Positions 16,619-19,772 of a DNA stretch of 37,222 nucleotides are shown here, one piece after another. The notes beneath the pieces are model-generated. The model saw only the letters and a program-made list of their open reading frames with translations. It was not told the DNA's origin and did not search any database. The stretch is from a virus. Made by a program: the position numbers and the translations under genes. Location: IMG/VR virus record IMGVR_UViG_3300046714_000526, positions 1-37,222 of that record; one strand, written 5' to 3'. The stretch's first letter is position 1. Each line of letters opens with the position of its first letter.

Positions 16619-17047
16619 CTAGGCCAATTTGACCGGTTGTTCCACGCGGACCAACACGCGAGTTGCTGTCAATGCCACGCCGATCACCACGAAGTAAGCG
16701 CCGCTGTAACCGCCCTGTGTCAAGCGGGCATCATCGCCGAGCCACACGGATTGACCCGGCGCCCACGACCACGACGCGTCCTCGACCTCGTCGCCAGGCA
16801 CAGCGACGTTGATCTCGGTGCCTGGTGCGCCGGCTTGCCGCGCGATCCCGATCGGCCATGCCCAACCCGGAACGGGGTTCAACGCCGGCACCACGGCGCC
16901 GGTGCCTATCGTCATGAGCACGTCCAAAGCCCGGATCGTGGAGGCCGCGATCCGGGACGATCCCGGCGTTGACGGGACCTGCGCCGTGAACGACACGCTG
17001 GCGCGCAGCGCGCGGAGCTCGTTGAGCAGGTCGTTCTGCACGCCCAT
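16619..17047 (-). CDS. Virion surface protein with MGVxNDxLNELR tag
   Basis: 142 aa from ATG 17047; upstream in-frame codons belong to the glycosyltransferase gene. The N-terminus MGVQNDLLNELRALRAS is nearly identical to that of the collagen-like protein at 19772. A beta-rich domain follows, with aromatic clusters (WAWPIG, SWSWAPGQSVWLGDD) and a C-terminal YFVVIGVALTATRVLVRVEQ. The shared tag suggests both proteins dock on the same virion site. The C-terminal domain could be a receptor-binding or decoration domain; family not recognised. Confidence 0.65.
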   Translation of the reverse strand: MGVQNDLLNELRALRASVSFTAQVPSTPGSSRIAASTIRALDVLMTIGTGAVVPALNPVPGWAWPIGIARQAGAPGTEINVAVPGDEVEDASWSWAPGQSVWLGDDARLTQGGYSGAYFVVIGVALTATRVLVRVEQPVKLA

Positions 17048-17064
17048 ATGCGTGCAGGATACCG

Positions 17065-18984
17065 CTAATCCAGGCACTTGGCCGCGGCCAGCTTCTCTTC
17101 GGCCAGGCGTTGATTCTCGCGGATGCGGGCGCGCTGGTCCGGCGGCGCAACATCGAGCAGCCGAAAGCACTCCGCCGCGCACAGCTCATAGTTCCCGACC
17201 CAGTACGCCGCGATGGCTAGCTCGTCCGCGGCCTGCCACTCGTACACCGAGGCCTCGACGCATAGCCGATCCGGTGGCCGCGGGATGCAGGCCGCGTGCT
17301 GGGCGTACAGGTACGCCAAGGCATAGTCGCCGCGAAAGCGATGCCACCGGGCCAGCGCGACCAACGGCTCGGCGCGCTGTGGCCTGGCCTGCCAGGCCCG
17401 CAAGAACGCCGCCGGGACACGATCGTCAGCCACTCCGGAGCGCTCGTAGATCCTGGCGATCCGCAGCAAGGCTAGCCAGGCCTCCTCGTCGAACCCGCCC
17501 GGCAGCGCGGCGCGGCGCTCGTACGCCGTCACGGCGTCGCGGGTCAAGCCAGCCAGCTCCAAGCTCTGCGCCAAGTAATGCCACGCCCTGGCGTCTGTCG
17601 GGTCCTTCTCCAGCCTGGCCACAAGCTGCTTGGCCTCGCGAGCGTAGCGCTCCGTTGGTGGCTCCTTGCTCGCGGCACCATCGCGCAGGTTTCGGATCGC
17701 GGCCTGCTTGGCCAGGCTGCCAACGCTCGCCGCCGAAGTGTCAAGCAATTCGTGGACATCCCCGTTGTATTTCCACGGCAGGCCGAGGCGGACTACACGC
17801 ACCTTAGGGTACCGGAGTTCGCCCATGCGCTCTTCAACTTCCCAGACGTCGCTGGTCTCGATGCCGACGAAAGCCCCGGGCAAGACATCCTCCAGCACCT
17901 CGTCAGCGTCCAGGATCAGGCCATAGGTGCCATACGGCGCGGCCAGCGCCAAAGCTTCGCCGCGGTTGTGCCCGTAGCTCATCCACGGCCGGCGGTGCAA
18001 GGCGCCGGGCAGGTGGCCGAGCTTCTCCTGGATGATCCTTGGCGTGGTGGCGCCACGCCCGTTGAAGCTGATCGACCATGCACCGATATGTGGCAGCGCG
18101 GAATCGATGGCCCTGCCGATCGTGGCGTCCTCGTCCTGGCAAACCATGACCAGCACCAAGCGTGGTCTCCCCAGCGCCGCCGCGATCGTGGCGGTCATGC
18201 TCGGCACAGGCTCGCAGTGGTCCACGGCCGACTGCAGGTAGGCATCGTCACAGAGCTGTGCGCACCAATCCGCGAGGGCTTCGTACCCGCTCAGCACGGC
18301 CCCGGCATCGAATGCAACGTTGTCCTCGTCGCCAGCGCTGAACTCCGACACAACACGCCAGCCGTTGTGCAGGGCCCACAGCACGCGAGGGGCCTCAAAG
18401 ATCGCGGCGTCGTAGTAATGCACGTTCAGCGCGACCTTGGCACTCGCCATCAAGGCGTCACGCTCGGCGCCGTACACCCCGAAAGGCACGCGCAACACCT
18501 TGAGGCCACGGGTCTCAAGCCCATTCAGCACGGCCTCACGGCGTGCGTTGAGGGCACCAGCGAACGCGACGTCGTAGTTCGGGGTGAGAACCCGTGGCAT
18601 CTTGAGCTGGCTAGGGTGGAACCCCACGTGGACGATCGCCGCGGGCGGGCGCAACCCGACCTCGCCGTAACGGCTGGCGTTGATCGCGCTGTATTCCCAG
18701 ACCTCATGTCGGTTGAACAGCTCGACCACGTCCGGCGGGAACCACCCGGACCCGACCTGCTCCAGGTTGTAGACGATGGCGTCCGGCGGCAATTCCCAGC
18801 CCAGCGCCACGGCGTGCTGGGCCCCGAGCACGATCGCCCTGCGGCCTACCGGCGGCCGGCCAAGCACCACCAGCGAGTCATGGCCGAGCTCGCGCAGGCT
18901 GGCGTCGATCGACTCCGCCACCTCCCGGAACGCCTCGACGTGAGGGTTGGTGCCGTCAGACAGGATCGTTACCGCGAACCGCAT
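17065..18984 (-). CDS. Two-domain glycosyltransferase with TPR-like tail
   Basis: 639 aa from ATG 18984, overlapping the methyltransferase gene by 29 bases. Residues 1-270 resemble a CgeB-like/GT1-type fold: YDVAFAGALNARREAVLNGL near 137-156, then ALNVHYYDAAIFEAPRVLWA near 185-204. Residues 275-415 resemble a GT2 domain, with a CQDED start, a DADE metal-binding motif near 359-362 and a VHE near 410-412. Residues 440-639 are helical and repeat-like (TPR-type), with ARAWHYLAQSLELAGLTRDA. Such fusions transfer sugars to proteins or polysaccharides. Neighbours are a methyltransferase and collagen-like and fibre-like virion genes, so virion glycosylation is plausible. Host-surface modification is the alternative. 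Donor and acceptor cannot be read from sequence. Confidence 0.8.
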   Translation of the reverse strand: MRFAVTILSDGTNPHVEAFREVAESIDASLRELGHDSLVVLGRPPVGRRAIVLGAQHAVALGWELPPDAIVYNLEQVGSGWFPPDVVELFNRHEVWEYSAINASRYGEVGLRPPAAIVHVGFHPSQLKMPRVLTPNYDVAFAGALNARREAVLNGLETRGLKVLRVPFGVYGAERDALMASAKVALNVHYYDAAIFEAPRVLWALHNGWRVVSEFSAGDEDNVAFDAGAVLSGYEALADWCAQLCDDAYLQSAVDHCEPVPSMTATIAAALGRPRLVLVMVCQDEDATIGRAIDSALPHIGAWSISFNGRGATTPRIIQEKLGHLPGALHRRPWMSYGHNRGEALALAAPYGTYGLILDADEVLEDVLPGAFVGIETSDVWEVEERMGELRYPKVRVVRLGLPWKYNGDVHELLDTSAASVGSLAKQAAIRNLRDGAASKEPPTERYAREAKQLVARLEKDPTDARAWHYLAQSLELAGLTRDAVTAYERRAALPGGFDEEAWLALLRIARIYERSGVADDRVPAAFLRAWQARPQRAEPLVALARWHRFRGDYALAYLYAQHAACIPRPPDRLCVEASVYEWQAADELAIAAYWVGNYELCAAECFRLLDVAPPDQRARIRENQRLAEEKLAAAKCLD

Positions 18985-19522
18985 GCATGCTCCCCGGCGC
19001 GATCGCGCCAAGGTTTGCGGGCGATCGCGCGCCATGCAGCTTACGCGCGAAGATGAACGCGCCTGGTGCCTGAGGATCGGGCTCGGCGGCCAGCACCGCG
19101 AAATCAGCGAACGCCCGGACAAGGTCATCCACGCTGAACCGCCAGTGGTCGGCGGGGTAGTCGTGCAGCGGGAACCCGACGGAACGCGTGGTGAGCAGGA
19201 TCACGCCACCCGGCATCAATACTGCCTTCATGGCCTCGATCGCGGACCGCCAGTCCTCGACGTGCTCCAGCACCTCGGCGCACACGACGACGTCGAAGCC
19301 GGCCGTGCCGAACGTGGCGACGAGGTCGGCAGCGGGGACCACCATGTCCACACCGGGTCCATGCCGCATGTCAACGCCGACGTACTCCACGGGCCTCAAG
19401 GCTTCAACCTCGGGCCGCACGGTGCCGTTCACGTCGTAGCTGCCAACCTCCAAAACCTTCGCGCCGCCGACCACCCCAGCTACGAGGTGGTGGCGCGCAA
19501 AGCGCAGCACTGAATCGTGCAC
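18956..19522 (-). CDS. Class I SAM-dependent methyltransferase
   Basis: 188 aa from GTG 19522; further upstream the frame lies out of phase inside the collagen repeat. Motif I is [11 protein letters not shown] (residues 23-33), the motif II acid is in [13 protein letters not shown], and the post-IV segment is [16 protein letters not shown] with a following [11 protein letters not shown]. This is the 'methyltransferase type 11' pattern common beside glycosyltransferases. The [11 protein letters not shown] segment is typical of sugar- or small-molecule-modifying members. The target is unknown; capping or modifying a glycan made by the overlapping downstream gene is a reasonable inference. Confidence 0.85.
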
Positions 19523-19526
19523 GCGA

Positions 19527-19772
19527 TCAGGTCGGGCCGGTGGGCCCGGTAGCGCCAGTCGCTCCGGTCGCACCCGTTGCGCCAGTAGCTCCGGTCGCGC
19601 CGGTGGCTCCCGTGCTACCGGTTGCCCCAGTGGCACCAGTCGCGCCCGTGCTGCCTGTGGCCCCGGTAACAGCAACCCCAGTGGGCCCGGTCGGTCCCGC
19701 GGTGGCGGTGATGGTATCGAGGCTGGCGCTGATCACCCTCAACTCGTTCAGGATGTCGTTCATAACGCCCAT
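19527..19772 (-). CDS. Collagen-like virion protein
   Basis: 81 aa, ATG 19772. Residues 1-17 ([17 protein letters not shown]) match the tag of the gene at 17047. From about residue 26 to the end the protein is Gly-X-Y triplets, mostly GAT/GPT/GST, i.e. a collagen-like triple helix that stops directly at the stop codon. Phage collagen-like repeats form trimeric rods on tail fibres or capsids. Thr-rich GXT repeats are good O-glycosylation sites, and a glycosyltransferase gene lies two genes downstream. The DNA repeat is an obvious site for length variation. Confidence 0.8.

What the first reader, a model, noticed from the sequence alone, without database searches (positions are those of the whole stretch)
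16619..19772. Two surface proteins with one N-terminal tag around a glycosyltransferase-methyltransferase pair
[17 protein letters not shown] (collagen-like protein, 19772) and MGVQNDLLNELRALRAS (17047) share 12 of 17 residues, but their C-terminal domains are unrelated: GXT collagen repeats versus a beta domain. The tag is probably a virion-docking helix that carries exchangeable surface modules. Between them are a methyltransferase and a glycosyltransferase gene. Together this may be a cassette for building and glycosylating (and methylating) Thr-rich phage surface rods.
Basis: partly seen in the sequence, partly recalled or inferred. Interest (0 to 1): 0.8.

Follow-up and report, generated by a model that had tools for sequence, protein, structure and literature searches.

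The report
Split-anchor phage fibre with collagen rod
A virus of bacteria carries a compact six-gene set for a beaded surface fibre in which two different proteins, a collagen-like rod and the base of the fibre, begin with the same short tag, with sugar- and methyl-adding enzyme genes between them.

Summary
In detail: the proteins starting at 19772 and 17047 (- strand) share 12 of 17 N-terminal residues, the best of 1.25 million start-site pairs in the window, with a methyltransferase and a glycosyltransferase gene between. Relatives explain most of it. The 17047 protein ends in the cap domain of the Anabaena phage A-1(L) neck-fibre base gp82; the next gene is the repeating bead (gp81, 40% identity), the third a tip with a conserved bead-binding start. 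In 34 of 62 non-redundant loci the fibre base has a collagen stretch directly before the cap, in one polypeptide. Here collagen and cap are two polypeptides, each with the tag. A syntenic relative lacks all six genes at the same site, so they form one optional cassette. I read the tag as a minimal anchor (or shared zipper) for two appendages. Glycosylation of the collagen is plausible (Thr at Y in 17 of 17 triplets, 6 of 183 in relatives; TPR-bearing enzyme as in SgtA) but not shown. Against a widely exchanged tag: three collection scans found no relative. New variant of a known kind.

The parts
19527..19772 (-). Collagen-like protein, 81 aa: tag (residues 1-17), spacer, 17 Gly-X-Thr triplets with one 5-residue interruption
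   Evidence: Pfam Collagen 1.1e-07; 15 of 15 triplets after the interruption are spelt by different 9-mers
19722..19772 (-). Tag copy 1, [17 protein letters not shown]
18956..19522 (-). SAM-dependent methyltransferase, 188 aa, GTG start 4 nt after the collagen stop
   Evidence: Pfam Methyltransf_23 1.6e-11, phrog_32762 1e-18; a relative lies directly before the adaptor in L015 (phmmer 1.3e-15)
17065..18984 (-). Glycosyltransferase, 639 aa: N-terminal part without a family match, glycosyltransferase region, C-terminal TPR-like helices
   Evidence: phrog_13126 beta-1,4-glycosyltransferase 7.4e-11, residues 323-625; 34.4% to Tunturi_5 glycosyltransferase, 1e-41; TPR by weak Pfam hits, designed TPR chains and the only confident part of a poor model
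16619..17047 (-). Fibre adaptor (base), 142 aa: tag helix, short linker, cap domain
   Evidence: phmmer to A-1(L) neck fibre gp82 (8keg) 4.6e-09, residues 36-141; AlphaFold mean pLDDT 86.1, helix 4-17, pLDDT below 50 at 20-26; folds like phage decoration proteins
16997..17047 (-). Tag copy 2, MGVQNDLLNELRALRAS
16016..16603 (-). Repeating bead of the fibre, 195 aa
   Evidence: 40.5% identity over 163 aa to A-1(L) gp81; 62 phage records and 185 IMG/VR stretches, 80 kept
15507..16010 (-). Fibre tip, 167 aa, GTG start; N-terminal bead-binding motif then another payload
   Evidence: tip-motif score 23.3 against -2.7 for the next of 1,583 window starts
19776..20276 (-). Left flank of the cassette (acidic 166-aa protein), conserved in syntenic relative L105
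   Evidence: 1.2e-10 to L105 5993-6643
15190..15498 (-). Right flank of the cassette (102-aa protein); weak counterpart in L105, next gene 14949-15188 clearly conserved
   Evidence: 14 of 500 shuffles reach its score against L105 6682-6987; 14949-15188 1.6e-14

Best explanation
15507-19772 is one optional cassette of a contractile-tailed phage for surface fibres of the A-1(L) 'bead-chain neck fibre' type. The adaptor (17047) is the fibre base: its cap domain seeds a chain of bead trimers (16016-16603) that ends in a tip trimer (15507-16010). Its N-terminal helix replaces the larger docking domain of A-1(L) gp82. The collagen-like protein (19772) carries the same helix and so goes to the same place: either as a second, short trimeric rod (about 15 nm, from recalled collagen geometry) on equivalent docking sites, or in mixed trimers with the adaptor. 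In many relatives anchor, collagen and cap are one polypeptide; here they are split over two genes, probably by duplication of the anchor around the methyltransferase-glycosyltransferase pair. That pair most likely puts a sugar on the Thr of the Gly-X-Thr rod and methylates the sugar, which would stiffen a proline-poor rod and change the virion surface. Shown here: the genes, the homologies, the split, the empty site. Inferred: virion location, trimers, docking by the helix, sugar transfer and its target.
For: Cap: phmmer 4.6e-09 to gp82. Bead: 40.5% over 163 aa to gp81. Tip: motif score 23.3, next -2.7 of 1,583 starts. Gene order adaptor-bead in 88 of 90 loci. Collagen stretch (at least 4 Gly-X-Y triplets) in the 70 aa before the cap in 34 of 62 clusters; shuffled mean 0.5, maximum 3; 10 of 1,220 other ORFs. 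Shared N-terminal domain with a second protein also in L063 and L087. Six genes spaced 4 to 17 nt apart or overlapping by 29. Empty site in L105, whose MCP is 67% identical. Thr at Y in 17 of 17 triplets against 6 of 183 in relatives. Tail sheath and tape measure in the window. A-1(L) experiments: gp82N docks on the neck, gp82-gp81-gp80 self-assemble (PMC10966104).
Against: The tag has no homologue outside this phage in the collections scanned, so its docking role rests on position only. 28 of 62 adaptors, the window's included, have no collagen stretch by the criterion used, A-1(L) among them. The glycosyltransferase is found in none of the other loci; methyltransferases lie just before the adaptor in only L015 and L084. 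Glycosyltransferase model poor (pLDDT 43.9). A-1(L) gp80 lacks the tip motif. No virion data.
Confidence: 0.66

Rival explanations
1. The tag is a zipper, not a virion dock: the two proteins form mixed coiled-coil trimers, so that collagen rod and bead chain are joined to each other, and another part makes contact with the virion.
For: Hydrophobic residues at positions 4, 7, 11, 14, 18 in the collagen tag (M, I, L, I, L) and at 7, 11, 14, 18 in the adaptor tag (L, L, L, V; position 4 is Q); hydrophobic moments 0.46 and 0.40; helix 4-17 in the model.
Against: In A-1(L) the N-terminal part docks on the neck (PMC10966104), and adaptor N-termini vary between phages as docks would. An 81-aa collagen protein would then have no anchor of its own.
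Confidence: 0.25
2. The collagen gene is a decaying remnant: an ancestral anchor-collagen-cap adaptor was duplicated or cut by insertion of the enzyme pair, and only the adaptor copy works.
For: Anchor, collagen and cap are one polypeptide in 34 of 62 clusters; two tag copies flank the enzyme pair.
Against: Open frame, 3-4 nt spacing to both neighbours, all 15 later triplets spelt differently while Gly and Thr are kept without exception, three of five tag changes conservative (I/L, I/L, V/A).
Confidence: 0.15
3. The enzyme pair acts on something else: bead or tip (11% and 14% Thr), other virion proteins, phage DNA, or the host's surface glycans.
For: In phages ctKR88 and phiPsal1 relatives of one or both enzymes lie in clusters near the major capsid gene. 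Bead and tip are rich in Thr and Ser.
Against: The pair lies directly between collagen and adaptor genes, overlapping by 29 nt, and is not found in the L105 and L107 records (these may be fragments). Thr at every Y position.
Confidence: 0.4
4. The tag similarity is convergent or chance (any amphipathic start helix).
For: Short, 17 residues.
Against: Best of 1,252,153 pairs with a clear gap (57 against 45), same strand, 2.7 kb apart, starting at the initiator Met in both.
Confidence: 0.03

Closest known systems
Bead-chain neck fibre of Anabaena phage A-1(L), gp82-gp81-gp80 (PDB 8keg; PMC10966104)
   Same: Cap domain homologous to gp82C, bead homologous to gp81, same gene order base-bead-tip, contractile-tail phage
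   Different: No gp82N docking domain: a 17-residue tag instead; separate tagged collagen protein; methyltransferase and glycosyltransferase inside the cassette; no BLAST match of the tip to gp80
Adaptors with anchor, collagen and cap in one chain, e.g. Pseudomonas phage KPP25 ORF086, annotated 'structural protein', and 34 of 62 clusters
   Same: Anchor, collagen and cap parts together with the bead gene downstream
   Different: There one polypeptide, Y positions mostly Pro/Gln/Ala; here two polypeptides, all Y positions Thr
Clostridium difficile BclA3 and glycosyltransferase SgtA (PMC7157674, passages read)
   Same: Gly-X-Thr collagen next to a glycosyltransferase with a TPR part; sgtA lies immediately upstream of bclA3 and the enzyme adds beta-O-GlcNAc to Thr
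   Different: Spore coat, not virion; SgtA is 358 aa with the GT domain first, ours is 639 aa with an extra N-terminal part; a methyltransferase gene intervenes; no sequence comparison with SgtA was made
phi29 head fibre gp8.5 base and phage decoration proteins (Foldseek)
   Same: Similar fold of the cap domain (Mycobacterium phage Adjutor chain 3.2e-04; gp8.5 base 2.8e-02)
   Different: Those bind capsids directly with this fold (recalled); here it is the outward cap that holds the bead chain, by analogy to gp82C

Membership tests
A-1(L)-type bead-chain neck fibre | Base protein with gp82C-type cap domain | tested here: met
   (4.6e-09)
A-1(L)-type bead-chain neck fibre | gp81-type repeating bead encoded next | tested here: met
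   (40.5% over 163 aa)
A-1(L)-type bead-chain neck fibre | Distinct tip protein after the bead | tested here: met
   by the motif of 51 of 60 relatives' tips; A-1(L) gp80 itself does not match that motif
A-1(L)-type bead-chain neck fibre | gp82N-type docking domain on a neck protein | tested here: not met
   phmmer match starts at residue 36; only a helix and linker precede it. So filed as a variant of the fibre kind, not as an A-1(L)-type neck fibre in the strict sense
A-1(L)-type bead-chain neck fibre | Located on the neck of the virion | not testable with these tools
   needs electron microscopy
Glycosylated Gly-X-Thr collagen with dedicated glycosyltransferase (BclA3-SgtA kind) | Gly-X-Thr repeats | tested here: met
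   17 of 17 triplets
Glycosylated Gly-X-Thr collagen with dedicated glycosyltransferase (BclA3-SgtA kind) | Glycosyltransferase with TPR part near the collagen gene | tested here: met
   one gene (methyltransferase) lies between
Glycosylated Gly-X-Thr collagen with dedicated glycosyltransferase (BclA3-SgtA kind) | Sugar on Thr | not testable with these tools
   needs mass spectrometry
Glycosylated Gly-X-Thr collagen with dedicated glycosyltransferase (BclA3-SgtA kind) | Sequence homology of the enzyme to SgtA | not tested
   SgtA sequence was not fetched

The most novel reading that the evidence does not exclude
A phage virion with two unlike trimeric appendages on one kind of docking site, sorted by a 17-residue shared tag: a phage-glycosylated and methylated Gly-X-Thr collagen whisker and a bead-chain fibre. 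The ratio of the two is then set by competition of nearly identical tags, and the collagen whisker is a virus-encoded counterpart of the glycosylated collagen nap of spores.
Probability: 0.3. Interest if true: 0.75.

Novelty: new variant of a known kind. Interest (0 to 1): 0.55.

Why it matters
It turns a pair of orphan N-termini into a defined fibre cassette and shows the parts list of a little-studied fibre type: exchangeable anchor, optional collagen stalk, cap, bead, exchangeable tip. The adaptor-bead order was found in 88 of 90 loci, most of them uncultured phages. The tip rule (one bead-binding start, 28 unrelated payload groups among 48) and the split-anchor rule are simple to test and useful for annotation. 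If the collagen is glycosylated by the phage, it gives a minimal system (one 81-aa substrate, one transferase, one methylase) for asking what sugars on a virion surface do.

Tried and rejected
Relatives of the adaptor by its own sequence in IMG/VR: none by tblastn, so the bead was used as bait instead. Relatives of the glycosyltransferase in IMG/VR: none. Tag as DNA pattern: strict form 0 in viral contigs, 2 in genome contigs, of which one opens the last 62 residues of a Clostridia frame (GTPase-like text, my reading) and one meets a stop after 14 residues; relaxed form 10 in viral contigs, none of 10 followed by a cap, bead or collagen stretch. Structure of the glycosyltransferase from one sequence: mean pLDDT 43.9, only the TPR part usable, not used for a fold search. 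Flanking direct repeats that would mark an insertion: none joining the two cassette ends among 13 families. Flagellum-type head fibres of phage 7-7-1 as a parallel: passages read, fibre protein unknown there. KPP25 ORF087 as a second protein with a shared anchor: no similarity to ORF086. Collagen protein against phage records by tblastn: no match, which the low-complexity filter makes uninformative. Terminase relatives were fetched but not analysed. Papers: searches listed no paper that by its title or abstract deals with collagen-bearing relatives of the A-1(L) neck fibre or with this cassette; only PMC10966104 (outline, passages, section 8), PMC7157674 (passages) and PMC12796354 (passages) were opened.

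Other shared-N-terminus hits (L021, L060, L074) were set aside as low-complexity or antisense frames, not counted. Rows left out of the locus set before counting: L005, L006, L007 (same contigs as L019, L023, L028), L001, L094, L095 (the window itself). The 80 loci are the best of 185. In one search ORFs over 800 aa were left out and 125 of the ORFs within 2 kb upstream were given.
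Full report
Observation. The window is a 37,222-base virus record, 66% GC, with its structural genes on the - strand: terminase, portal, major head protein, tail sheath and tape measure by PHROGs, so a contractile-tailed phage. Their first 17 residues agree at 12 places and their DNA at 37 of 51. Over all 1,583 starts of frames of at least 50 aa, the pair ranks first of 1,252,153 (score 57, next 45). The pattern of the tag occurs only at these two places in the window.

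What the second protein is. Its residues 36-141 match A-1(L) neck-fibre protein gp82 (PDB 8keg) at 4.6e-09. The next gene, 16016-16603, is 40.5% identical over 163 aa to gp81, and the three A-1(L) genes gp82, gp81, gp80 lie in the same order. In A-1(L), gp82 residues 1-125 dock on the neck, gp82C and about 14 gp81 trimers form a chain of beads, and gp80 is the end bead; the complex self-assembles in E. coli (PMC10966104, passages and section 8). An AlphaFold model from 30 adaptors has mean pLDDT 86.1: the tag is a helix (4-17), residues 20-26 are below 50, and the rest is a beta domain that resembles phage decoration proteins and, more weakly, the base of phi29 gp8.5.

How relatives are built. 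With the bead alignment (14 rows) as bait, IMG/VR gave 185 relatives, of which the best 80 were kept. After leaving out duplicates and adding earlier loci, A-1(L), Stenotrophomonas phage Moby and the window, 90 loci hold a bead, and in 88 of 90 a gene with the cap domain precedes it. The 88 fall into 62 clusters at 80% identity of the cap. In 34 of 62, at least four Gly-X-Y triplets lie in the 70 residues before the cap; shuffling the same stretches gives 0.5 on average and 3 at most (200 shuffles), and 10 of 1,220 other ORFs have such a run in their first 75 residues. So the commonest base is anchor, collagen stalk and cap in one chain; the 28 others, A-1(L) and the window included, have no such stretch by this criterion. 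KPP25 ORF086, annotated as a structural protein, is of the collagen-bearing kind. In the window the stalk and the cap are on two chains, each with the tag.

Shared anchors elsewhere. In L063 about the first 130 residues of the adaptor recur at the start of a 1,499-aa fibre gene four genes on (9.6e-16 for 91 columns), with an unrelated remainder; in L087 the adaptor's N-terminal domain also exists as a free-standing 132-aa protein just upstream (8.4e-09). Three of 62 clusters, the window included, thus show one anchor used twice.

The tip. In 60 of 61 other clusters a frame starts within -12 to +80 nt of the bead stop. A simple matrix of the first 24 residues (roughly MA-RRPLV-VSG--QELPSGDTLPG) recognises 51 of 60 when each is left out in turn; the window gene 15507-16010 scores 23.3 and the next of 1,583 window starts -2.7. 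Payloads behind that start are diverse: 48 tips with 50 or more further residues fall into 28 BLAST groups. A-1(L) gp80 is one of the nine that do not fit.

The enzymes. 18956-19522 is a class I methyltransferase by Pfam and PHROGs. A relative lies directly before the adaptor in L015 (1.3e-15), with the same HDS near its start as the GTG-started window frame, and a methyltransferase-like protein without detected similarity to it lies before the adaptor in L084 (motif reading). Of 125 neighbouring ORFs from 56 of 61 other clusters, 2 match Methyltransf_23. 17065-18984 matches a PHROG of beta-1,4-glycosyltransferases over residues 323-625 (7.4e-11) and phage proteins named so (34.4%, 1e-41); its end is TPR-like. 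Its first 260 or so residues have no family match; they look to me like a second glycosyltransferase of the GT-B kind, which is recalled, not tested. Relatives of both enzymes lie downstream of the major capsid gene in the ctKR88 phage record, and a methyltransferase relative lies between two glycosyltransferase genes next to the major capsid gene of phiPsal1.

Is the collagen their substrate? For: position, and Thr at Y in 17 of 17 triplets with few prolines, against 6 of 183 in 34 relatives; all 15 triplets after the interruption are spelt with different 9-mers, so the protein pattern, not a recent DNA slip, is kept. SgtA, a glycosyltransferase with a TPR part encoded just upstream of the Gly-Pro-Thr collagen BclA3, adds GlcNAc to Thr (PMC7157674, passages). 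That sugars on Thr stabilise such helices is recalled; a paper search for it was not followed. Against: bead and tip are Thr-rich too, there are no virion data, and the enzyme is alone in its kind among the loci searched.

One cassette. The MCP of L105 is 67% identical over 450 residues. L105 keeps the order minor head protein, 166-aa-protein homologue, small genes, scaffold, MCP, but only 38 nt separate the 166-aa homologue from the next small gene, where the window has the six genes. L107 likewise has no cap or bead there, though it has some other coding space. The glycosyltransferase, the methyltransferase and the tag are not found in the L105 and L107 records (the records may be fragments). 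The L105 record has two other proteins with cap-like domains elsewhere. The right border is uncertain by one gene. Within the six genes the gaps are 4 to 17 nt or an overlap of 29, and the collagen starts 3 nt after the 166-aa gene.

Mechanism. I propose: the tag helix docks (or zips) trimers to one place on head or neck; adaptor trimers seed bead chains; collagen trimers stand beside them as short rods, or share trimers with adaptors; the enzyme pair decorates the Thr of the rod. Docking rests on position and homology, the rest is inference. The rival 'zipper' is close and cannot be excluded; the tag has the spacing for a coiled coil. Against a travelling tag, no record scanned carries it before a cap, bead or collagen.

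Novelty. The bead-chain fibre is described from one phage in the papers seen. The library searches named in Tried and rejected listed no description of collagen-bearing relatives, of the tip motif, or of a split anchor with enzymes between. I file it as a new variant of a known kind.

Noticed in passing
L004-L093, gene after the bead: Tips share a bead-binding start (roughly MA-RRPLV-VSG--QELPSGDTLPG) in 51 of 60 clusters but carry payloads of 28 unrelated groups among 48: an exchangeable-tip rule for this fibre type.
   Followed up: partly
L063:9241-9987 and L063:11442-15941: Adaptor and a 1,499-aa fibre protein share about their first 130 residues.
   Followed up: partly
L087:3866-4264 and L087:4274-5191: A free-standing copy of the adaptor's N-terminal domain lies directly upstream of the adaptor gene.
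   Followed up: partly
L039:10946-11557: A protein with the tip start carries a 19-triplet collagen stretch.
   Followed up: no
L015:3793-5220: Protein before the methyltransferase-adaptor pair has an HTKG stretch that recalls some glycosyltransferases (recalled; no family match).
   Followed up: no
beads of the window and of L004-L008: The N-terminal SAGAGDA-type hairpin motif of the bead occurs once, twice or three times in different phages (alignment).
   Followed up: no
window 21439-22206 (-): Protein with a weak LamG/ConA-like lectin match (0.015) upstream of the minor head protein; perhaps another surface protein.
   Followed up: no
window 9226-9858 and 10576-11289 (-): Two HNH endonuclease genes among the head and tail genes.
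   Followed up: no
MW202524.1 1656-11978: Glycosyltransferase and methyltransferase cluster directly after the major capsid gene.
   Followed up: no
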